DNA of 51,382 nucleotides from the NCBI GenBank assembly GCA_021777225.1, contig JAJYDQ010000023.1, positions 1-51,382 on the forward strand. Direction: 5' to 3'. Origin of the DNA: Deltaproteobacteria bacterium. Its GTDB lineage: Bacteria; Desulfobacterota; Desulfomonilia; Desulfomonilales; Desulfomonilaceae. Every line of letters begins with the position of its first letter. Position 1 is the stretch's first letter. Both the position numbers and the translations under genes were made by a program. Shown one piece after another: positions 28,657 to 39,616 of the stretch. The notes below the pieces were generated by a model. The model was given only the letters and a program-made list of their open reading frames with translations, had not been told where the DNA came from and searched no databases.

Positions 28657-29754
28657 CTATACAGGCGGAACTATTAGAAAAAGGCTTTCTTTAGGCGCCT
28701 TAACTAGAATTGGCTGACCTGCGGCAAGGTTCAATTCTTTGGCAGCGGTGCTATGGAGAGTGATTTCGATGTTCTTAGATCCACTCCCACAGGATGCGAT
28801 TACAACATGAGACGCTCCTGTGTCAAAATGGTCTATGACAGTTCCGTTTATAATGTTGGTAGCCCTCGACATAAATTCACCGGACGTTAGAATTAAGACA
28901 TCTTCAGATCTTATCCCAAATATCACGTCTTCATTTGGTCGTACTATCAATTTGGGCAATTGGCTTGATAGGGCGAGAGTCACGCCAAGTCCTTCACATC
29001 GCACAGCCAGAGAATCGTCATTGATCGACTCAATTTTTCCACGGAAGATATTGCTGATTCCAAGAAATCTGGCTACCTCTTCACTATGTGGGCGTCTGTA
29101 GACTTCTCTTTTTTCCCCCTGTTGAAGGAGTTTACCATCCATGATTACGCTGATAGTGTCACCAAGGAAGAAGGCTTCTTCCAGATCATGAGTAACCATC
29201 AATATGGCAAGATCGTATCTTCTTTTTAAGTCCTTTAGAAGATACCGCAATTCGGTTTTGAGACTTTCGTGAAGGGCTGACAGAGGCTCGTCCAGCACCA
29301 GATACTTGCCGCCAGAAAGTATGGCTCTAACGAGCGCTGTCCTTTGGCGCTCTCCTCCGCTCAAATTTGCAATCCGTCTATCTAAGAGGCTCCGTATTGT
29401 CAAGGAGTCAATAAGTTCGCGAACGATGCCTGTTTCTGTGTCCTGATGTGCGCCTCTAATTTTTAACGGATAGAGAATATTTTCGCGCACGGTCATGTGT
29501 GGGAATAGAGCCAGATCCTGTGGAACGTAGGAAAGTTTGCGTTTCTCCATGGGCAGGCCAGTGATATCCCTGTGTTCCAAAACTATTTTTCCTTCTTTTG
29601 GGTCTCTCAGTCCAATGACGGATTCCAGAAGGAGCGTCTTACCACTTCCAGTAGGCCCAAGTATCACATGACACGATGACGGAAGAACTTTTAGAGAGAC
29701 ATTGCTGAGGACAAAACTTCCCGCCTGGACTGAAAGGTTGGCAATCTCAAGCAT
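28657..29754 (-). CDS. modC: molybdate/tungstate-type ABC transporter ATP-binding protein
   Basis: ABC ATPase of 365 residues, the size of ModC/WtpC. Walker A is GPTGSGKT, the Q-loop lies in YVPQDLALFP, the signature is NLSGGERQRTALVRAI, Walker B is YLVLDEPLSAL and the switch His is in VTHDLEEA. The C-terminal third (about 235-365) contains a TOBE/MOP-like domain that would sense the oxyanion. It overlaps the permease gene by 8 bases. Whether molybdate or tungstate is carried cannot be told; other small-ligand importers with the same domain layout are less likely given the binding protein. Confidence 0.87.
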   Translation of the reverse strand: MLEIANLSVQAGSFVLSNVSLKVLPSSCHVILGPTGSGKTLLLESVIGLRDPKEGKIVLEHRDITGLPMEKRKLSYVPQDLALFPHMTVRENILYPLKIRGAHQDTETGIVRELIDSLTIRSLLDRRIANLSGGERQRTALVRAILSGGKYLVLDEPLSALHESLKTELRYLLKDLKRRYDLAILMVTHDLEEAFFLGDTISVIMDGKLLQQGEKREVYRRPHSEEVARFLGISNIFRGKIESINDDSLAVRCEGLGVTLALSSQLPKLIVRPNEDVIFGIRSEDVLILTSGEFMSRATNIINGTVIDHFDTGASHVVIASCGSGSKNIEITLHSTAAKELNLAAGQPILVKAPKESLFLIVPPV

Positions 29755-30535
29755 ATGAGGCGCCTGAGGAGATCAAGCGGACGATGTAGAGGATGCTAAG
29801 CCCGATAGACACCAATATCAGGATTAAGATTACCGACCCTTCTATTTCCGCGCTGGAGAGTCTCATGAATATTGCAATTGGAAGAGTCTCGGTTTTCATT
29901 GCCATTGACCCGGCTATGGTAATTGTCGCTCCGAACTCACCGAGCGCCTTTGCCCACGAAAGGATCAAGGCGGCATAAATACCTCTTTTGCTCAATGGAA
30001 GTGTAATAGTGACGAAAGCCCGCCACGGTGATGCGCCAAGAGTCCTTGCTACCGCTTCATACCTGCATGGTATCTCGTCCATCGCCGCCTTTATCAATCT
30101 TGTGGTAACACCGCACACTGTAAGGAATTGAGCCAGGACAATGCCGTAGAATGTGAAGACGAACTGAGTCCCGTGGTCCTGTATCCACAAACCTACAGGA
30201 TTATTAAAGAAGATCAATAGCATTGCGCCCAGCGCCGCTGGCGAAACTATCATGGGCAGTTCAAGAATCGTGTCGACAGCCCTCTTGCCCGGGAAGTCAT
30301 ATCTGGACAAAGCAAATGCTGATGGGATAGCGATCAGTACGGATAGTAGAGTGCTAATAGTAGCGGCGACAATACTCAAGCGGATGGAAAAGAGCGTTCT
30401 TTCCGAGCGTAGGGTGTCCCACAATGTCTCGCCCCGAAAGAAATAGAACAAGGACAAAATAAGGAGCGCATAAATACCGAACGTGGCAAGTGAAAAGGCG
30501 ATTGAAATCTTCCTAAAGGTCATTTCCTGACCCAA
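29747..30535 (-). CDS. modB: molybdate/tungstate-type ABC transporter permease
   Basis: A 262-residue permease with about five to six membrane helices. The cytoplasmic EAA loop that contacts the ATPase is clear: EAVARTLGASPWRAFVTITL, followed by AKALGEFGATITIAGSM, a hallmark of ModB/WtpB/CysT-type permeases. It sits between the binding protein (16-base overlap upstream) and the ATPase (8-base overlap downstream), so the three genes are translationally coupled. Confidence 0.9.
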   Translation of the reverse strand: MGQEMTFRKISIAFSLATFGIYALLILSLFYFFRGETLWDTLRSERTLFSIRLSIVAATISTLLSVLIAIPSAFALSRYDFPGKRAVDTILELPMIVSPAALGAMLLIFFNNPVGLWIQDHGTQFVFTFYGIVLAQFLTVCGVTTRLIKAAMDEIPCRYEAVARTLGASPWRAFVTITLPLSKRGIYAALILSWAKALGEFGATITIAGSMAMKTETLPIAIFMRLSSAEIEGSVILILILVSIGLSILYIVRLISSGASYA

Positions 30536-31389
30536 TCCTTGGGGACTTCATAAACTCCACCCACCGGTTTTTTCTCTCCGATCCAAGCTGCCGCGTCATC
30601 AGAGTTCATGAAGTAATGGTATTTTCCGAAAATACTTTTTCCTTCATCCGACAGGAGGAAGTCAATGAATTGCTGCGCAAGAGGTCTGTTCGAGGTGAAT
30701 TTTGAAATGGCGACAGGGATGTATCCAATACGAACAATTTGAGACTTGTCAAGTGGAATAGTCTCGATGCGTTCTGGGTCCCAGTAATGAAAAACTCGCC
30801 AGCCTATGACAGCGTCCGCTGCTTTTAAGGAAATTGCCGTAGCCGTCTTTTCACAACTCTCCGTGTAATTTATGAGGTTTTTCTTGAAAGCTATTTTCTC
30901 CTCGGGTGTGAGAGAGGATTCTATTATTTCCACAGCGTAGGCCCCAACGCATACGCCCTCAGGATTGGCTATGGCTACCTTGAGACCGGGGCGAGTAAGG
31001 TCTTTTAGTATTTTAATTTTCTTAGGATTCCCTTTGGGAACGTTGATTGCCGGCACAAGATAAACGACTATTTTTTCGGTTTCAGGGAAAACCGCCTCTT
31101 TCTTCTTAGCCGCCTCCATGTAATCCGAAGAACCGGGGAAATAGATGTCACCTTTCCTGCCCAATATCATTTGCGAAAGCACGAACCCCGATCCGCCGAA
31201 GATCACATCTACCTTGACGCCGGTCTTGGCTTCAAATGCTTTTGCAGCGTCTTCCGTAGGCGGCTTGCTAGCAGCCCCTGCGAACACCATCAATCTGTCT
31301 TCCGCAAGACATTTCTCAAAATTTCCTGAGATCCAAATACCCAACATAATGTTTACTAAAGTGAAAATGAAGACTAGTCGTCTGTTCAT
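30520..31389 (-). CDS. modA: molybdate/tungstate-type substrate-binding protein
   Basis: Periplasmic binding protein of 289 residues with a signal peptide (residues about 1-29, ending KCLA). After it come MVFAGAASKPPTEDAAKAF, TGVKVDVIFGGSGFVLSQM and GDIYFPGSSDYMEAA, the order of oxyanion-contacting segments in ModA/WtpA-like proteins. The later LNYTESCEKT-like region and AADAVIGWRVFH also fit. It is first in the operon with the permease and ATPase. Anaerobes use Mo or W in formate dehydrogenases and aldehyde or aromatic-acid reductases, none of which lie in this window. Confidence 0.87.
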   Translation of the reverse strand: MNRRLVFIFTLVNIMLGIWISGNFEKCLAEDRLMVFAGAASKPPTEDAAKAFEAKTGVKVDVIFGGSGFVLSQMILGRKGDIYFPGSSDYMEAAKKKEAVFPETEKIVVYLVPAINVPKGNPKKIKILKDLTRPGLKVAIANPEGVCVGAYAVEIIESSLTPEEKIAFKKNLINYTESCEKTATAISLKAADAVIGWRVFHYWDPERIETIPLDKSQIVRIGYIPVAISKFTSNRPLAQQFIDFLLSDEGKSIFGKYHYFMNSDDAAAWIGEKKPVGGVYEVPKDWVRK

Positions 31390-31875: not shown

Positions 31876-31904
31876 TTGACATTTCGGTCATGAGTGAATA
31901 AAAA
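31876..31904 (+). promoter_or_regulatory. promoter of fluoride riboswitch 1
   Basis: TTGACA at 31876-31881, a 17-base spacer and TAAAAA at 31899-31904. Transcription would begin about 10 bases before the aptamer. Confidence 0.55.
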
Positions 31905-31920
31905 TATTCCGAAATACTCC

Positions 31921-31974
31921 TTTGGGGATGGAGTCCCCCCATAAAACCGCCTCATAGGCTGATGACTCCTGCCG
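31921..31974 (+). promoter_or_regulatory. fluoride riboswitch aptamer (crcB motif), copy 1
   Basis: The stretch reads GGGGATGGAGTCCCCCC, then ATAAAACCGCC, TCAT, and GGCTGATGACTCCTGC, following the crcB-motif consensus in order: the GGnGATGG opening helix, the conserved ACCGC/ACGC loop side, and the GGCTGATGACTCCT closing strand. It starts right after a consensus-like promoter and ends in a switchable hairpin region. The gene 156 bases further on is a dynamin-like GTPase, not the usual crcB/fluc exporter. I am confident in the motif from its conserved bases; no covariance search was run. Confidence 0.9.
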
Positions 31975-32043
31975 TAGGGACTTTCGCGGCGGGATCTAAG
32001 TGTCAAGTTGTACCCGCCGCACGGCGGGTTTCTTGTTTCTTGT
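31967..32043 (+). terminator. four-segment expression platform of fluoride riboswitch 1
   Basis: Four mutually exclusive segments can be read. A = TCCTGCCG (31967-31974, aptamer 3' end). B = CGGCGGGA (31987-31994). C = CCCGCCG (32013-32019). D = CGGCGGG (32022-32028), followed by TTTCTTGTTTCTT. A:B pairs over 8 positions with one G-U, B:C over 8, and C:D over 7. Predicted logic: without fluoride A:B forms, leaving C:D as terminator; with fluoride A is locked in the aptamer, B pairs C and the terminator is lost, giving an ON switch. Confidence 0.75.
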
Positions 32044-32129
32044 CAGCGTCACGATTTTTCATGAATTCGCGAAATATTCGCAGTTTGCGAAAATGAAAAC
32101 ATGAAAATCCAGTATGAGGAGCGTTAGTC

Positions 32130-33962
32130 ATGAATTATGCAGGCCATAGCTTAATTGTTGAAACGCCCACAGAGTGTATTTCGGAGGCGGATTCCGTTCT
32201 TCGGTTTGGCAAACTCCTTGGCGAAGCCACAACAAAGGTCCTTTGTCTAGGAGGGGATTTTGCCGCAGAGTTGGCCAAGCTCGTCGCTCTAAAAGAGCGC
32301 CTCGAAGAAGGTCGGTTCCATCTGGCCATACTTGGGCAATTCAAACGCGGCAAGAGCACGCTTTTGAACGCTTTAATTGGAGAATCCATATTACCGACAT
32401 CCGTTGTGCCGCTCACGGCTATCCCCACATTCGTGGAGTATGGTCCGGAGAGAGGTGTCAGGGTCCATTATCAGGATGACAAACCTTCGGATGAATTCTG
32501 GAACAAGACTCCGGAAGAGATGAATAAAATCTTACAGGCGTTTGTGACCGAAGAGGGGAACCCTGAAAATCATTTAGGGGTGCTTCAGGTTGATATAGTT
32601 CATCCAGCAGAGATACTTAAAAACGGCGTGGTGCTTATCGATACGCCAGGCATCGGGTCCACTTTTACTCACAATACTCAAGCGACGTTGAATTTTCTAC
32701 CTCAATGCGATGCTGCCTTGTTTGTGGTGTCAGCCGACCCTCCACTTACAGAAGTGGAGGCTGCCTTCCTTCAGGATGTGTTCCCAAAGGTTTCCCATCT
32801 CTTTTTCATTTTCAACAAAGTCGATTACCTAAATGAAAAGGAAAAGGAAGCGGCCGTAGCGTTTTTTGTAAAGGTCCTGAAACAGAAGATCCCTTCGAGT
32901 GAAAATTATCCAATCTTTTGTGTGTCCGCTCGCATGGGCTTGGATTCCAAAACGTCCAATGAAACTAGTCTGTGGAGTCAGAGTGGGCTAGATGCCGTAG
33001 AGAATCATCTTGTTTGCTTCCTGCTGTATGAAAAGACCAGGACATTGCTGGACGCTTTGTCGAAGAAGGCTGTTGACATCCTAGAAAGCGCTGTAATGAG
33101 GCTCAGATTGGAAATAGTGTCTCTACAGATGCCGATTGAGGACCTGGAAAAGAGGCTTAGTCTATTCGAAAAGGAACTCAAAAATGCGGAACGGCAAAAA
33201 GTTTCAGCTCAGGATATGTTGATCGGGGACAGGAAGCGAACGCTCGCTCTCCTGGAGGAACACGCCGAGACTCTCCGAAAGGCGTCAGAGGAACATTTGA
33301 GCAAGGCTATAGACAAATCTTTTGCGGAGATTACTGACGGGGAGATCAATGAGCAAAGGATTCTGGATGTTTTGGCGGAGGAAGTCACATCTTTTTTTGG
33401 GGAGTCCGCTGAAAAAGTAACTTCCCGTTTCGCTCGACTTGTAGTTGAAGCCTTAAGCCCACATCAAGAACGTGCCGACGAACTGATCTCGCAGATACGA
33501 AAAACTGCGGCGGAGCTTTTTGAAATTCCCTACCATGCCCCTGACAGTTCGGAAGTGTTTGAGACAAAGCGAAGGCCTTACTGGATCCAGCGAAAAAGAG
33601 TCCCGTCACTGCCTATAGTAATTCCTGAAGAAGTCCTTGACAGGTTTCTTCCTGTAAGTGTCAAGAAAAACAGAATGAGGAAGCGTTTTGTGCGACAGGT
33701 AGAAATTTTGACTCAACAAAACGTTGAAAATCTAAGATGGGCAACACTGCAAAATCTTAATGACGCGTTTCACAGGTTTGGCACTGTGCTTGATGAACGC
33801 TTCGTGGAAACAATTAATGCGACTCACGGAGCAATACAGGCAGCTTACATCAAACGAAAAGAACACGCTGAATCGATTGATGAAAATTTGCAAAGACTGT
33901 CAATAGCGGCCGGAGATTTGGTGAAAATCAATTCAGAAATTTTATCTTTGAATTCCAGATAG
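32130..33962 (+). CDS. dynamin-family large GTPase under a fluoride riboswitch
   Basis: A 610-residue bacterial dynamin-like GTPase. G1 is GQFKRGKST at 69-77, G3 is DTPG at 171-174 and G4 is NKVD at 229-232; the G2 Thr is probably in the VPLTAIPT stretch. After the GTPase domain come long charged helices (about 320-410) and more helices to the end, fitting a stalk that senses or remodels membranes. No clear membrane helix pair was seen. GAGGAG lies 9 bases upstream of the ATG. It is the first gene behind fluoride riboswitch 1, so it should rise when cytoplasmic fluoride rises. A membrane-repair or cell-envelope role in fluoride stress is inferred, not known. Confidence 0.88.
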   Translation: MNYAGHSLIVETPTECISEADSVLRFGKLLGEATTKVLCLGGDFAAELAKLVALKERLEEGRFHLAILGQFKRGKSTLLNALIGESILPTSVVPLTAIPTFVEYGPERGVRVHYQDDKPSDEFWNKTPEEMNKILQAFVTEEGNPENHLGVLQVDIVHPAEILKNGVVLIDTPGIGSTFTHNTQATLNFLPQCDAALFVVSADPPLTEVEAAFLQDVFPKVSHLFFIFNKVDYLNEKEKEAAVAFFVKVLKQKIPSSENYPIFCVSARMGLDSKTSNETSLWSQSGLDAVENHLVCFLLYEKTRTLLDALSKKAVDILESAVMRLRLEIVSLQMPIEDLEKRLSLFEKELKNAERQKVSAQDMLIGDRKRTLALLEEHAETLRKASEEHLSKAIDKSFAEITDGEINEQRILDVLAEEVTSFFGESAEKVTSRFARLVVEALSPHQERADELISQIRKTAAELFEIPYHAPDSSEVFETKRRPYWIQRKRVPSLPIVIPEEVLDRFLPVSVKKNRMRKRFVRQVEILTQQNVENLRWATLQNLNDAFHRFGTVLDERFVETINATHGAIQAAYIKRKEHAESIDENLQRLSIAAGDLVKINSEILSLNSR

Positions 33963-34143
33963 AAATTCTGAACTTTGAGATTTCTTTGATTCCAGAATAG
34001 ATTGAAAGAATTGCTCGGTAAGTTTGAATTCAGGTAATATAGTCTCTCATCCGATTGACGTGTCTGCCGGGAAGTGATCCATAAACAGCGCTTCCAGATG
34101 CCCTCTCGCAATACAAGGCCGACCACAATTCGAGGCAAAGCCC

Positions 34144-35184
34144 ATGTCGAGTGACCATTTTTTGTCCTTTGAGAAAGAAATAATTACCGCAAAGTTTATT
34201 GCTCCTTCCGGCGAAGATATAGAGAGACGAATCGAAGTTCGTATCAATCCTGTTTCGGGGCGAAGCAGTAGAATCGCATTCGGACGGGGTGCCGAAAAAG
34301 AACCGGGAACAGAGAGCCTGCCGTTGCCGCCACTGAATGCTGATGATACTGCCGGTTGTCCATTTTGCAAGCCGCAGGTCATGTCAGAGACGCCTAGGAT
34401 TCTTGCCGATATTATTTCTGGTGGGCGTTTTTGTTATAATAATTCAATTTTATTTCCGAATCTTTTTCCTTATGGTAGATATTCGGCGGTAAGCCTTTTT
34501 GACAACCAGCACTTTGTAGAAATCGGCGCCTCGTCAGTATCTTCATATACCGACTGTTTTATCAATTGCCGGAATTATCTTTGCCACATACTTGAGAGTG
34601 ATCCCGAAGCCGTTTATATGGCAATTACTCAGAATCATCTACCTTCTGCCGGTGGCTCTTTGCTTCATCCACACCTTCAAATCAATGCGGAGAGAATTGC
34701 TCCCAACCATCATCGTTTTTTTCGGAAAAGGGCAGAGGAATATTTTCATCAAACCGGTTCTTATCTGTTCTCTGATTATCTCCTGCATGAAAAACAGGAT
34801 GGTAGCCGTTATGTCGGGAAAAACGGTTCATGGGAATGGATAATGGCCTTTGCTCCCGAGGGCTTTTTTGAAATCTGGGGCATTTTACCTAAGATCACAT
34901 CTCTGAATCAGATCATGGATGAAGATTGGAATCACCTTGCTCAGGGGGTTATCAACACTCAGAAATTTTATCGAAGCCTTTGCAGAAACGGGTATAATTT
35001 AGGTATGTTGTTTGTCGAGGATGGAAATTCTTATCTTGAAATGCGGGTGGTGATTCTTGCCCGATCCAATTATGCGCCGTGGGTGAGGAATGATCATACC
35101 GGCTTCGAGATCATGCTTGGAGACATGGCAACGTTCACATCACCTGAAGATAATGCAAAAAACGCCAGAGTATTTTGGACATAA
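34144..35184 (+). CDS. GalT/HIT-superfamily nucleotidyltransferase-like protein
   Basis: A 346-residue protein resembling galactose-1-phosphate uridylyltransferase. It has a zinc-type CPFC pair (Cys72, Cys75), the GRYSAVSLFDNQHFVE segment, and the HIT active-site motif GGSLLHPHLQI with His175 and His177. The later WIMAFAPEGFFEIWG is like the second GalT half-domain. Canonical GalT uses HPHxQ, which is kept here. No Leloir pathway gene is nearby. It follows the dynamin gene by 181 bases on the same strand and may share its fluoride-controlled transcript. A nucleotidyl or dinucleotide-polyphosphate transferase or phosphorylase role is possible; the substrate is unknown. Confidence 0.8.
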   Translation: MSSDHFLSFEKEIITAKFIAPSGEDIERRIEVRINPVSGRSSRIAFGRGAEKEPGTESLPLPPLNADDTAGCPFCKPQVMSETPRILADIISGGRFCYNNSILFPNLFPYGRYSAVSLFDNQHFVEIGASSVSSYTDCFINCRNYLCHILESDPEAVYMAITQNHLPSAGGSLLHPHLQINAERIAPNHHRFFRKRAEEYFHQTGSYLFSDYLLHEKQDGSRYVGKNGSWEWIMAFAPEGFFEIWGILPKITSLNQIMDEDWNHLAQGVINTQKFYRSLCRNGYNLGMLFVEDGNSYLEMRVVILARSNYAPWVRNDHTGFEIMLGDMATFTSPEDNAKNARVFWT

Positions 35185-35388: not shown

Positions 35389-35398
35389 TTTAAGCATA

Positions 35399-35455
35399 TG
35401 AATGGGGATGGAGTTCCCCTCAAGAAACGCCAATAGGCTGATAACTCCTACTGTG
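35399..35455 (+). promoter_or_regulatory. fluoride riboswitch aptamer (crcB motif), copy 2
   Basis: GGGGATGGAGTTCCCC, then TCAAGAAACGCC, AATA, and GGCTGATAACTCCTAC. These are the same conserved blocks as copy 1 (GGGGATGGAGT, CGCC, GGCTGAT-ACTCCT) with different variable loops. It lies upstream of a 159-residue protein of unknown function, a CPA-type antiporter and UspA. Cation/proton antiporters are among the gene types previously linked to this riboswitch class, which supports the call. Confidence 0.9.
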
Positions 35456-35510
35456 TAAGAACGCACGGTGGGAGTTTTTTAGTAATATGCCCCACCGTCC
35501 GGTGGGTTTT
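35444..35510 (+). terminator. expression platform of fluoride riboswitch 2 with two terminators
   Basis: Segment A (35444-35455, ACTCCTACTGTG) pairs along all 12 positions, two of them G-U, with B (35464-35475, CACGGTGGGAGT), followed by T6: a textbook terminator that consumes the aptamer 3' strand. Then C (CCCACCG, 35491-35497) pairs with D (CGGTGGG, 35500-35506), followed by TTTTAT. B can also pair with C. The design is the same as copy 1, but here A:B is itself a terminator, so two gates act in series. Confidence 0.82.
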
Positions 35511-35623: not shown

Positions 35624-36103
35624 ATGATAGATAAAACTATCGTCGGTCACGTTCCCGCCGGCGAGGATAAAATCGTCATTAGACAGAGCCACAGAAGAGC
35701 GATTTCGGTCACGTTGACGTTATTTGACGAAGCGCTTTGCGGTTTTGACAGGTGGGCAGAGGGACAGGAAGTTCGATCAGTTTTTTTCGAGATTTTGAAC
35801 CCGCTTTCTGATGAGCAAAGAAAAAGGCTCTTGATTGAGCTGGCTGATCTCCGGAAACTGCTGCTTGAGATTAGAGATTTTCTCGGACTCGATCGTACGG
35901 TCGATAGCGTCCCCAAAATGATAGTCGGTAAATGCGCAGTTATGTGGTCTCCAATTGTGGAACTCGAAGGACGATATCTCAAGGGCTACGGTGAGGTACC
36001 AAATGCTTTGGAGGAATATTTGAACCCGAGGGCGAATCAATTGATCGAGGGATTGCGACGCATATCCCAAATTGCAGGGAATCATTCATTAGATAACAAG
36101 TAG
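35624..36103 (+). CDS. unknown 159-residue protein, first gene of the riboswitch 2 operon
   Basis: Starts MIDKTIVGHVPAGEDKIVIRQ, with AAGGTG about 10 bases upstream. No signal peptide or membrane helix. The middle (DEQRKRLLIELADLRKLLLEI) is an amphipathic helix that could dimerise. I recognise no family. It lies 14 bases before the antiporter start, so the two are probably co-translated, and it is the first coding region after fluoride riboswitch 2. A soluble partner or regulator of the antiporter is one possibility, inferred from position only. Confidence 0.75.
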   Translation: MIDKTIVGHVPAGEDKIVIRQSHRRAISVTLTLFDEALCGFDRWAEGQEVRSVFFEILNPLSDEQRKRLLIELADLRKLLLEIRDFLGLDRTVDSVPKMIVGKCAVMWSPIVELEGRYLKGYGEVPNALEEYLNPRANQLIEGLRRISQIAGNHSLDNK

Positions 36104-36117
36104 GTTTGGAGGACTTT

Positions 36118-37311
36118 ATGGAAAGCACGTGGTATGTAGCTACGATTTGGATAGGACTAGCGCTTGTAGCCAGTATTATCTCAATTCGCACCGCAATTTC
36201 TGTGGCCCTGGTGGAAATCTGCGTAGGAGTCGTGGGGGGAAATTTTTTGAGTTTGGACCCACACACGGAATGGATAAGCTTTCTGGCCGGTTTTGGAGCG
36301 ATACTTTTGACTTTTCTGGCTGGAGCGGAAATTGAAACAAATGTCCTACGCAAATACGGAAAGGAAACCTTGACTATCGGTTTAGTAGCCTTTTTCTTTC
36401 CCTTTCTGGGAGCAATGTCCTACGCTTATTACGTAGCCCATTGGGCCCCGGAAGCTTCCATGATTTGCGGTATAGCCCTGTCTACGACGTCGGTGGCGGT
36501 CGTGTACGCTGTCATGGTAGAGACTGGATTTAACGAAACAGAATTGGGCAAGCTTATTTTGGCCGCTTGCTTTGTAAATGATTTAGGCACGGTAGTAGCT
36601 TTGGGGGTACTTTTTGCCAATTACAACTATTGGCTGATAGCCTTCACAATTGTTACGGCAATTGTCCTATTTATTACCCCTTGGTTTCTACGGGGATTTC
36701 TGAAAATTTTCAGCAACCACGTAAGCGAGCCTGGAATAAAGCTGCTATTCATAATCCTGTTTGGCCTCGGCTGGTTGGCTACCAAGGCTAATAGCGAAGC
36801 TGTTCTGCCTGCATACCTTTTGGGTCTGGTGGTCGCAAACATATTTAAAGAGAATCGGGAAATGGTCAGACATCTTCGTACCGCTACCTTCGCTTTGTTG
36901 ACACCATTCTATTTTCTAAAAGCGGGAACCATAGTTTCACTTTCAGCAATGTATACTGGTTTTGGGCTAATCATCGCTTTACTGCTTGTAAAAATGGCGA
37001 CAAAATTTGTTGGCGTCTTCCCTTTGACCAAGGTGTTCAATTTAACTGGCAGGACGGGAATGTATACCACTCTGCTAATGAGCACAGGCTTAACTTTTGG
37101 CAGTATTTCAGCACTGTTTGGATATACGAGAGGAATCATAACACAGGACCAATATACGATTCTTGTTACTGTAGTCATTGGCAGCGCCGTTGTACCCACT
37201 TTAATTGCACAGTGGTTTTTCAAACCCAGAACAATAGATATGATCGGGACTGCTACAATAGGTAAAACCTGTGATACTCCATTAAGAAAATCTATTCCTG
37301 AGAAAGGCTAA
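36118..37311 (+). CDS. CPA-family cation/proton antiporter (Kef/NapA-like membrane domain)
   Basis: A 397-residue integral membrane protein with about 12-13 helices. GFGAILLTFLAGAEIE is typical of CPA2 helix 3. The ion-site helix reads CFVNDLGTVVALG, with Asn154-Asp155 in place of the Asp-Asp of electrogenic antiporters; ND usually goes with electroneutral exchange. There is no C-terminal RCK domain, unlike KefB/C. ATG 36118 follows GGAGG by 7 bases. It is in the fluoride riboswitch 2 operon, followed by UspA after 5 bases. It could counter the acidification or sodium load that comes with HF entry; direct fluoride export by this family is not established. Confidence 0.88.
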   Translation: MESTWYVATIWIGLALVASIISIRTAISVALVEICVGVVGGNFLSLDPHTEWISFLAGFGAILLTFLAGAEIETNVLRKYGKETLTIGLVAFFFPFLGAMSYAYYVAHWAPEASMICGIALSTTSVAVVYAVMVETGFNETELGKLILAACFVNDLGTVVALGVLFANYNYWLIAFTIVTAIVLFITPWFLRGFLKIFSNHVSEPGIKLLFIILFGLGWLATKANSEAVLPAYLLGLVVANIFKENREMVRHLRTATFALLTPFYFLKAGTIVSLSAMYTGFGLIIALLLVKMATKFVGVFPLTKVFNLTGRTGMYTTLLMSTGLTFGSISALFGYTRGIITQDQYTILVTVVIGSAVVPTLIAQWFFKPRTIDMIGTATIGKTCDTPLRKSIPEKG

Positions 37312-37316
37312 CAGTC

Positions 37317-37736
37317 ATGCTAAAAAAAATACTAGTCGGGCTTGACGGTTCGAGAGGGTCATTTAAAGCTCTTGGAGAAGCCATATTACTGGCTATGCTG
37401 GCAGGGACCGAAGTCCACACAATATCTGTCGAGGAGGTCCCGCGCTATCCTGGAACAATAGACGAATTTGTTGAGGAAAAGGACGCACAGGACACTTTCT
37501 ACGCCTCAGTGATTGCTCAGGCGCAAGCCAGAGCCAAGGAACAGGGTGTAACGCTAAAGCCCTTTGTGATGATAGGGCACGAGGTAAAAACCATTGTAGA
37601 ATTCGTCACTCAAAACAAATACGATCTGCTTGTGATTGGTTTTATGGGACATTCAGCGCTCTATGATAGAGTTATGGGAGGCACGTGCCAGGCACTGGTG
37701 CGTCTTGCGCCTTGTCCTGTGCTTGTCGTGAAATAG
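37317..37736 (+). CDS. universal stress protein, UspA family
   Basis: A 139-residue single Usp domain: KKILVGLDGSRGSFKALGEA at the start, and the ATP-binding loop GFMGHSALYDRVMGGTCQAL near 109-128 in the Gx2Gx9G(S/T) pattern, so probably a nucleotide-binding type. It ends CPVLVVK as usual. It starts 5 bases after the antiporter stop. Usp domains often pair with CPA antiporters as cytoplasmic regulators, so it may tune antiporter activity in the fluoride-responsive operon (inference). Confidence 0.92.
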   Translation: MLKKILVGLDGSRGSFKALGEAILLAMLAGTEVHTISVEEVPRYPGTIDEFVEEKDAQDTFYASVIAQAQARAKEQGVTLKPFVMIGHEVKTIVEFVTQNKYDLLVIGFMGHSALYDRVMGGTCQALVRLAPCPVLVVK

Positions 37737-38776: not shown

Positions 38777-39616
38777 TTAGAAAGCCATCTCAGGCTTCCA
38801 TACTTTCCACACGGCGCCGACCAGGTCCGCTCCAGGCTTCAGTGTGGGTTTTCCCGGCTGCCACCCTGACGGTGTCGCCTCACCTGTTTTTCGTACATGC
38901 TGAAAAGCCTGAACCTGTCGAATCAGTTCCGAGACATTACGACCTACCGCCGGCGTCAAGACCTCCATCCCCTGAATGACACCGTCGGGATCTATGATGA
39001 ACCGCCCACGAATGTCGACTCCTGCGTCATCTTCATAAACCCCGTAAACCTTACCAATTTTTCCGCCTGAATCGGCTAACAACGGGAAAGGAACCCCATT
39101 GGGAACCATTTTTGATAATTCGGTTTCCTGCCATATCTTGTGCGAGAATCGACTATCCGTACTTACGGCTAATACGTCCACACCCATTTTTTGTAATTCG
39201 GGATATTTGACCGCAACTGCGGTCAGTTCGGTAGGTCAAACAAAGGTAAAATCACCTGGGTAGAAACATAGCGCAACCCAACGACCCTTGTAATCCGAAA
39301 GCTTGATGTTTTTGAATTTGCCGTCTTGAAAAGCGTTTGCTTCAAAATCAGGAGCAGGCTTTCCAACTCTAGCCATGGGAGGCATGGAAGAGGATTGGAC
39401 CGGCGTCTGCCCTACGCTCGATTGTTGTTGATTCGGAGCGATTGGGCCTTTGGCTGGTTCCACACACGATTCCGATACTTCCTTTCCTTTTGGTTCGACA
39501 CTAGTCACATTTTTACCTCCTGTTGTGACAGCCACTGTCGCCGGTGGGTCAGCGGCCAAACATGGCATGGCTGAAAGAATCAAAAGTAAAAATCCGCCCA
39601 TAAGCCTAAAAATCAT
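38777..39616 (-). CDS. exported selenocysteine peroxiredoxin (AhpC/Prx family), UGA recoded
   Basis: Two ORF halves join across one in-frame TGA at 39238-39236 into a 279-residue peroxiredoxin. The TGA falls exactly at the peroxidatic position: [16 protein letters not shown], where relatives have FTFVCPTEL, giving Sec127. Both flanks are intact and in one frame, so this is recoding and not decay. A 7-bp hairpin begins 10 bases after the UGA. Residues 1-21 form a signal peptide ([17 protein letters not shown]), then a 60-residue Pro/Ser/Gln-rich linker. The resolving Cys motif GEVCP reads GEATP (Thr248), so it is a 1-Sec type needing an outside thiol. AAGGAGGAG precedes the ATG. It should reduce peroxides in the periplasm. 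Confidence 0.92.
39208..39225 (-). promoter_or_regulatory. bacterial SECIS element candidate
   Basis: On the minus strand TGACCGC, loop AGTT, GCGGTCA: a perfect 7-bp stem beginning 10 bases after the UGA codon, with a G-U in the loop as in the E. coli fdhF element. Position and shape fit SelB recruitment. Confidence 0.75.

What the first reader, a model, noticed from the sequence alone, without database searches (positions are those of the whole stretch)
31876..35184. Fluoride riboswitch controlling a dynamin-like GTPase and a GalT/HIT protein
The crcB-motif aptamer at 31921-31974 sits behind a promoter and in front of genes for a dynamin-family GTPase and a HIT/GalT-like nucleotidyltransferase. 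Genes known downstream of this riboswitch class are mainly fluoride channels, CLC-F antiporters, cation antiporters and fluoride-sensitive enzymes. To my knowledge, bacterial dynamins are not a described member. Dynamins remodel or protect membranes, so the cell may answer fluoride by acting on the membrane rather than by export. GTPases are also notable because AlF4-/BeF3- mimic gamma-phosphate and can trap G-domains.
Basis: partly seen in the sequence, partly recalled or inferred. Interest (0 to 1): 0.9.

Follow-up and report, generated by a model that had tools for sequence, protein, structure and literature searches.

The report
Fluoride-switched dynamin genes
A bacterial RNA switch that senses toxic fluoride sits directly in front of a gene for a membrane-shaping dynamin-like protein, and the same pairing recurs in dozens of related bacteria and some archaea, which suggests that cells answer fluoride partly by acting on their membrane and not only by pumping it out.

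Summary
Confirmed and extended. Rfam's fluoride model hits 31915-31978 (54.8 bits, cut-off 34) ahead of a dynamin-family GTPase (32130-33962). In 395 genomes of the phylum, families I/II of this GTPase occur at 53 places in 47 genomes; 39 of 53 have a same-strand aptamer within 600 nt upstream. A third dynamin family has one within 700 nt at 26 of 33 places. 49 of the 150 aptamers listed face a dynamin; 14 control loci of other dynamins show none. Three Methanoregula archaea have it too. 30 of 52 pairs have a terminator-like hairpin, 1.9 expected. Neighbours include enolase, antiporters and CrcB. Most likely a fluoride-induced, IniA/BDLP-like dynamin that protects the inner membrane: the regulatory link is strong, the membrane function inferred. 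The GalT-like gene is not a conserved partner. No printed report was found in the library searched; Baker et al. 2012 could not be read.

The parts
31876..31905 (+). sigma-70-like promoter, 9 nt before the aptamer
   Evidence: consensus scan, 10 of 12, spacer 18; chance matches are common, position is apt
31915..31978 (+). fluoride riboswitch aptamer 1 (RF01734)
   Evidence: 54.8 bits, gathering 34; own model, built with this row, 64.8 bits
31968..31993 (+). switching hairpin CCTGCCG/CGGCGGG, whose 5' arm overlaps the aptamer's pseudoknot strand ACTCC (31965-31969)
   Evidence: fold -15.0 kcal/mol; all cells paired in 8 sequences (window and 7 relatives), one pair changed on both sides
32012..32029 (+). 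intrinsic-terminator-like hairpin; its 5' arm (32013-32019) can instead pair with 31987-31993 (antiterminator)
   Evidence: fold -13.8; pair counts for both alternatives
32130..33962 (+). dynamin-like GTPase, 610 aa (family I)
   Evidence: Dynamin_N 5.2e-29; AlphaFold model close to IniA, BDLP and mitofusin
33519..33653 (+). codes for the stalk-tip loop (about residues 464-508), which begins within the conserved RKxAAELFEIPYHAP motif; candidate lipid-binding loop
   Evidence: alignment A1; low-pLDDT tip between two long helices; end of the trunk as in the IniA lipid-interacting loop (PMC6715688 abstract); lipid binding untested
34144..35184 (+). GalT/HIT-like protein, 346 aa; possibly in the same transcript, not a conserved partner
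35395..35457 (+). fluoride riboswitch aptamer 2 (RF01734)
   Evidence: 53.8 bits
35443..35476 (+). terminator hairpin overlapping the 3' end of aptamer 2, followed by a T run
   Evidence: fold -21.4
35491..35506 (+). second terminator-like hairpin of switch 2
   Evidence: fold -11.1
35624..36103 (+). 159-aa protein without a Pfam or NCBIfam match; relatives in several fetched loci
36106..37311 (+). CPA2-type cation/proton antiporter
   Evidence: Na_H_Exchanger 9.1e-38
37317..37736 (+). universal stress protein
   Evidence: Usp 1.8e-25

Best explanation
A fluoride-ON transcriptional riboswitch makes a dynamin-like GTPase that belongs to the fluoride response. Without fluoride, the aptamer's 3' strand is taken up by the switching hairpin (31968-31993); this leaves the downstream hairpin (32012-32029) free to form and stop transcription. 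With Mg-bound fluoride, the docked pseudoknot holds ACTCC, the freed CGGCGGG pairs with CCCGCCG, the terminator cannot form and the GTPase is made. The protein (N-terminal helices, G domain, long helical stalk, mobile conserved tip) most likely binds the inner membrane through its tip, assembles there and keeps the bilayer intact or less leaky while HF and protons enter. It works beside the antiporter, Usp and (in relatives) enolase or exporters. Shown: aptamer, adjacency, its recurrence, terminator-like hairpins, predicted fold. Inferred: switching logic, fluoride induction, lipid binding, protective role.
For: Aptamer over cut-off. Same-strand aptamer 40-383 nt (median 149) before the start of the profile match at 39 of 53 family I/II places, 37 of 47 genomes, 395 searched. 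Family III: 26 of 33 places within 700 nt, 5 more at 0.9-2.3 kb on the same strand, 1 at a contig end, 1 without. 74 of 79 genomes with a dynamin of families I-III have an aptamer, against 84 of 316 without one (Fisher 3e-29, not corrected for kinship). 0 aptamers in 14 control loci (13 distinct regions) of other Dynamin_N genes. Tree of 73 rows: 49 with aptamer, 21 without, 3 unscored; 7 changes of the label against 18.3 in shuffles. Terminator-like hairpin after 30 of 52 aptamers, 1.9 expected from shuffles. Hairpin and terminator: 100% of cells paired in 8 sequences, two pairs changed on both sides; covariation score reached by 0 of 500 shuffles, the count of such pairs by 206 of 500. Neighbours among 84 clustered loci: enolase at 18, CPA2 antiporter 14, Usp 12, mutase 8, CrcB 8, membrane pyrophosphatase 7; enolase, Usp, mutase and CrcB are also in the fluoride-induced operon of Enterobacter cloacae FRM (PMC5533749, passages). 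The dynamin often has a switch of its own: in L028 the next aptamer starts 75 nt after the dynamin stop; in L145 antiporter and Usp have one aptamer, dynamin and enolase another. Structure: Foldseek BDLP 3e-22, IniA 4e-21; VIA-align IniA Z 23.3 over 516 residues, mitofusin Z 26.7 over 339. Family III has a hydrophobic tip, consensus DLLWFLIPMFIF; it is the most hydrophobic stretch of the C-terminal half in 12 of 13 rows.
Against: 14 of 53 family I/II places have no aptamer within 600 nt. A Desulfuromonas-type clade (7 scored rows of 8) has none and another gene order, so the protein can serve without this switch. The family I tip is not strongly hydrophobic (highest 15-residue mean 0.74-1.56 over 21 rows, mostly not at the tip). 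The shuffle control for the antiterminator is weak (136 of 500 reach the observed score), and a fold with the pseudoknot strands blocked still keeps the terminator. The 8 sequences were chosen among near relatives that show this layout. No expression, binding or phenotype data exist here.
Confidence: 0.62

Rival explanations
1. The dynamin is controlled by fluoride not only through the RNA: Mg- or Al-fluoride with GDP mimics the transition state in its G domain, locks G-domain dimers and so drives or freezes its assembly on the membrane. The protein is then a second fluoride sensor.
For: Complete G motifs GQxKRGKST, DTPGxGS, NKxD. Structural relatives have been solved with GDP.AlF4-: human Dlp1 3w6p, Vps1 6djq (titles). 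Families I/II and III, with different tips, share the G domain and the switch.
Against: No measurement. Other dynamins should share this trait, yet those examined have no aptamer. [quoted passage not shown]
Confidence: 0.12
2. The dynamin organises or stabilises fluoride exporters, antiporters or other membrane complexes (a scaffold), with no fission or repair of its own.
For: Frequent neighbours are membrane transporters: CPA2 antiporter at 14 of 84 loci, MFS 10, CrcB 8, membrane pyrophosphatase 7 (MFS and pyrophosphatase named by eye).
Against: No single transporter accompanies it. CrcB is found in 20 of 79 dynamin genomes against 155 of 316 others.
Confidence: 0.15
3. The dynamin is a passenger; the switch serves other genes of the operon such as enolase or antiporter.
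For: Multi-gene operons occur, and in some loci the dynamin is not the first gene (L045; five family III places).
Against: At most places the aptamer lies just before the dynamin, and it may have its own aptamer between two others (L028). Recurrence in separate families.
Confidence: 0.03
4. It is an anti-phage or toxin-release dynamin (LeoA/LeoBC type) that happens to lie behind a fluoride switch.
For: PADLOC LeoA profile E 3.1e-21.
Against: NCBIfam LeoA/HP0731 model 16.1 bits against a cut-off of 325. The recurring neighbours named are fluoride genes.
Confidence: 0.03

Closest known systems
Fluoride riboswitch (crcB motif, RF01734)
   Same: aptamer over the curated score; terminator expression platform overlapping the pseudoknot strand, as described in PMC11077080 (passages)
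   Different: target gene is a dynamin. Targets named in what I read: exporters, Na+/H+ antiporters, enolase (PMC11139923 passages); mutS, K+/Cl- transport, formate hydrogenlyase (PMC2864571 passages)
IniA, mycobacterial membrane-fission dynamin induced by drug treatment
   Same: stress-induced bacterial dynamin; same overall fold (Z 23.3 over 516 residues); loop at the end of the trunk, where IniA binds lipid (PMC6715688 abstract)
   Different: 17-18% identity; no riboswitch is mentioned in the abstract; lipid binding of the present protein not tested
BDLP of Nostoc / mitofusins
   Same: G domain plus long helical stalk; BDLP is the best sequence match in the PDB (E 1.1e-43; organism recalled)
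   Different: NCBIfam dynamin DynA model far below cut-off (63.7 against 1600 bits)
E. cloacae FRM fluoride operon (ppaC, uspA, eno, gpmA, crcB)
   Same: riboswitch-led fluoride operon with enolase, Usp, phosphoglycerate mutase and CrcB, kinds of neighbour found here too
   Different: no dynamin in the passages and table seen; its pyrophosphatase is the soluble manganese type

Membership tests
Fluoride riboswitch RF01734 | score over Rfam's gathering score with complete model | tested here: met
   54.8 and 53.8 bits, cut-off 34, model 1-64
Fluoride riboswitch RF01734 | pseudoknot strands complementary | tested here: met
   GGAGT at 31930 and ACTCC at 31965; GGAGT at 35410 and ACTCC at 35444
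Fluoride riboswitch RF01734 | expression platform that competes with the aptamer 3' strand | tested here: met
   predicted hairpins overlapping ACTCC in both switches; pair counts for switch 1
Fluoride riboswitch RF01734 | binds fluoride and changes transcription | not testable with these tools
   needs in-line probing or in vitro transcription
Dynamin superfamily | dynamin G domain over Pfam cut-off | tested here: met
   PF00350 101.9 bits, cut-off 27
Dynamin superfamily | G1, G3, G4 motifs conserved | tested here: met
   invariant or nearly so in the 16 rows of A1: GQxKRGKST, DTPGxGS, NKxD (motif names recalled)
Dynamin superfamily | long helical stalk after the G domain | tested here: met
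   AlphaFold model, mean pLDDT 79.7, pTM 0.69; BDLP and IniA matches
Dynamin superfamily | GTP hydrolysis, membrane binding and remodelling | not testable with these tools
   biochemistry
DynA (NCBIfam NF052648 equivalog) | score over the curated cut-off | tested here: not met
   63.7 bits, cut-off 1600
LeoA/HP0731 dynamin (NF041922) | score over the curated cut-off | tested here: not met
   16.1 bits, cut-off 325
IniA-type membrane-fission dynamin | lipid-interacting loop at the trunk tip | tested here: inconclusive
   a mobile tip that begins in a conserved motif lies there; lipid binding untested
GalT (for 34144-35184) | score over Pfam or NCBIfam cut-off | tested here: not met
   17 against 29.2 bits; 46.2 against 448 and 35.6 against 102.1

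The most novel reading that the evidence does not exclude
Three dynamin families form a dedicated, widespread and partly exporter-independent branch of the prokaryotic fluoride response, and fluoride also acts on the protein itself: metal-fluoride/GDP locks its G domains and triggers assembly of a protective coat on the inner membrane, so RNA and protein are two fluoride sensors in series.
Probability: 0.12. Interest if true: 0.93.

Novelty: new variant of a known kind. Interest (0 to 1): 0.82.

Why it matters
In the reviews seen, fluoride resistance is export, pH control and metabolic adjustment. Here a membrane-remodelling kind of GTPase is among the most frequent targets of the fluoride riboswitch in one phylum: 49 of the 150 aptamers listed. 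Few bacterial dynamins have a known trigger (recalled); a riboswitch names the trigger, fluoride, and makes function testable at once. It also suggests a membrane side to fluoride toxicity, relevant to oral fluoride use and to engineered organofluorine degraders.

Tried and rejected
Passenger hypothesis: unlikely, because the aptamer mostly lies just before the dynamin. Chance adjacency: rejected by recurrence and by the control loci. GalT as a conserved partner: rejected for lack of conservation. Against this rejection: in L189 a GalT-like ORF (27%) stands before an aptamer, as the window's GalT stands before switch 2, and L188 of the same ORF cluster holds a partial one. Defence dynamin: weak LeoA match only. 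Plasmid or phage carriage: 4 of 72,556 plasmid records (E limit 1e-20) and 1 of 50,697 phage records (1e-10) match, all partial and at most 38.4% identical.

Dynamin in place of CrcB: CrcB is rarer in dynamin genomes (20 of 79 against 155 of 316), but it is also rarer in aptamer genomes as such (53 of 158 against 122 of 237); within aptamer genomes the difference is 17 of 74 against 36 of 84, p 0.011. None is corrected for kinship, so I do not build on it. The first aptamer alignment (A2) held three rows on the wrong strand and was replaced (A3). Own model R1 has only 4 base pairs, so it is mostly a sequence profile, and some searched loci gave rows to it.

Rows dropped before counts. Tree: L035 (near copy of L034), L042, L045, L046, L172, L194, L202, rows under 140 bits and ORFs under 400 aa; L151 was added by hand because my ORF picker had lost it; 3 rows at contig edges were not scored. 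Terminator count: L035 dropped, only aptamers within 400 nt of a dynamin ORF of 100 bits or more. Census: one search lists 150 aptamers, best E-values first, and says more exist; 109 of 150 were examined. I left out most of those already known to face a dynamin or held in other loci, some on short contigs, and three beyond my request of 80 regions; 1 of 109 had no ORF by my picker, so Pfam counts are of 108. Controls: 14 loci, 10 of the 30 (the other 20 belong to families I-III or are pieces of them) plus 4; L142 and L200 are the same gene, so 13 regions. Two partial dynamins behind aptamers (L224, L238) and the short one of G084 are not in the 49.
Full report
What is there. The window is one whole contig of a 4.04-Mb genome (153 contigs, 97.6% complete). 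Rfam's fluoride model matches twice, at 31915-31978 (54.8 bits) and 35395-35457 (53.8 bits; cut-off 34), and no other match was found in the genome. Switch 1 precedes a dynamin-family GTPase (32130-33962) and a weakly classified GalT-like gene (34144-35184). Switch 2 precedes a 159-aa protein of no family, a CPA2 antiporter and a universal stress protein.

The switches. Switch 1: the pseudoknot strand ACTCC (31965) also lies at the foot of a hairpin 31968-31993; its 3' arm CGGCGGG can pair with CCCGCCG (32013), which is the 5' arm of the terminator 32012-32029. In eight sequences (the window and seven near relatives chosen for this layout), hairpin and terminator keep every pair, with one pair in each changed on both sides; the covariation score is reached by 0 of 500 shuffles, the number of such pairs by 206 of 500. 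The antiterminator pairing is kept at 96.4% of cells, but shuffles do as well in 136 of 500, so this part of the logic is inference. Over 52 aptamer-dynamin pairs, 30 have a terminator-like hairpin within 130 nt against 1.9 in dinucleotide shuffles, and in 17 the stem overlaps the aptamer's end. Overlap of pseudoknot and terminator is the published logic of fluoride riboswitches (PMC11077080, passages). The simple scan shows no promoter-like site on the + strand between switch and gene.

Recurrence. In the order (18 genomes), the GTPase is found in 10 and the aptamer in 9, 8 of them over the cut-off. One scan of GTDB species genomes gave 20 loci. Nine have an aptamer on the same strand just before the dynamin: L028, L029, L030, L031, L032, L036, L037, L038, L039; three are Methanoregula archaea, and four (L028, L029, L031, L039) are contigs of genomes of the window's order. 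L034 and L035, near copies, have a divergent one. In L045 and L046 an aptamer stands two genes ahead on the same strand. L033, L040-L044 and L047 have none; some of these contigs are cut close to the gene.

In 395 genomes of the phylum, the profile finds 53 places in 47 genomes; 39 of 53, in 37 genomes, have a same-strand aptamer within 600 nt. Reading what follows other aptamers revealed a third dynamin family. Of 108 first ORFs, Pfam counts are Na_H_Exchanger 31, Dynamin_N 23, CrcB 12, DUF190 4, NADHdh 4, CLC 2, enolase 2, among others; two of the 23 dynamins are of families I/II. Family III: 33 places in 33 genomes, 26 within 700 nt of an aptamer, 5 at 0.9-2.3 kb, 1 at a contig end, 1 without; R1 finds an aptamer in 25 of the 30 loci held. 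Families I/II and III share one genome. Of the 150 listed aptamers, 49 face a dynamin. 74 of 79 dynamin genomes carry an aptamer against 84 of 316 others. Other Dynamin_N genes: 0 aptamers in 14 loci, 13 distinct regions.

Neighbours. Clustering the ORFs of 84 loci, 77 of which hold an ORF of the dynamin cluster, gives enolase at 18 loci, CPA2 antiporter 14, Usp 12, MFS 10, CrcB 8, phosphoglycerate mutase 8, membrane pyrophosphatase 7. Enolase, CPA2 and Usp clusters are named by Pfam matches of a member; MFS, mutase and pyrophosphatase by eye. Several dynamins without an aptamer are still in such surroundings: G214 (L143) beside enolase and CrcB, L033 beside enolase, G195 (L190) in a stretch with three aptamers, and the five members of one clade (L178, L180, L183-L185) beside a membrane pyrophosphatase. 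A Desulfuromonas-type clade has neither aptamer nor such neighbours in the loci read. It may show another use of the family, or the older one; the unrooted tree cannot tell gain from loss.

The protein. The AlphaFold model (16-row alignment, pLDDT 79.7, pTM 0.69) has N-terminal helices, a G domain and a long helical stalk with a tip at about 464-508 that is partly of low confidence. Nearest folds: BDLP, IniA, mitofusins. The tip begins in the conserved motif RKxAAELFEIPYHAP. IniA binds acidic lipids with the loop at the end of its trunk and cuts membranes (PMC6715688, abstract). Family III has a hydrophobic tip, consensus DLLWFLIPMFIF; family I does not, so its membrane contact, if any, would be more like that of IniA.

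How it most likely works. Fluoride enters as HF and is trapped inside as F- (PMC11139923, passages). The switch then lets the dynamin be made. I think the protein coats or mends the inner membrane while the antiporter restores pH. The step from induction to membrane protection is inference.

Known or new. In the open-licence library, no paper holds both 'fluoride riboswitch' and 'dynamin'. Searches with crcB, fluoride resistance, GTPase and COG0699 showed nothing that joins them in the listings seen, which are capped (20 of 857 listed; 15 of 69). In a 2024 review the passages seen name exporters, Na+/H+ antiporters and enolase, and the word GTPase does not occur in its text. The founding paper of 2012 and its gene lists are not held, so a line on a dynamin or GTPase there cannot be excluded. 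I call it a new variant of a known kind: known switch, known fold, an apparently undescribed and large class of target.

Noticed in passing
window 38777-39616 (-): A peroxiredoxin gene is open through one in-frame TGA at the place of the peroxidatic cysteine (FTFV-U-PTE; the place is recalled), so it looks like a selenoprotein; ORF lists split it in two.
   Followed up: partly
L028:8069-11672; L034, L035, L173: A HEAT-repeat protein and two proteins in which Pfam finds only MutS domain V lie behind a fluoride aptamer in L028; relatives cluster at L034, L035 and L173.
   Followed up: partly
L031:7737-8486 and relatives in L028, L029, L039, L173: A family of about 240 aa with SPGEIHFLWWFIQGSIMNPSTRxRLRKxWG and no Pfam match recurs near enolase and dynamin at fluoride loci.
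   Followed up: partly
G195 contig C1, 1509-13398 (L190, L204-L206, L312): A cluster with four fluoride aptamers, an enolase-like ORF, CrcB and two different dynamins within 12 kb.
   Followed up: partly
L036, L037, L038: In Methanoregula two divergent fluoride aptamers share one intergenic region: one faces the dynamin, the other enolase. L038 has a second dynamin-like gene behind the enolase.
   Followed up: partly
L046:3689-5543: In Methanolobus halotolerans SY-01 the dynamin reads in three pieces, behind an aptamer and ORFs that by eye are CrcB and DUF190; gene decay or assembly errors.
   Followed up: no
window 28657-31389 (-): An ABC uptake system (binding protein by Pfam; permease and ATPase by eye) lies divergently upstream of the fluoride genes.
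   Followed up: no
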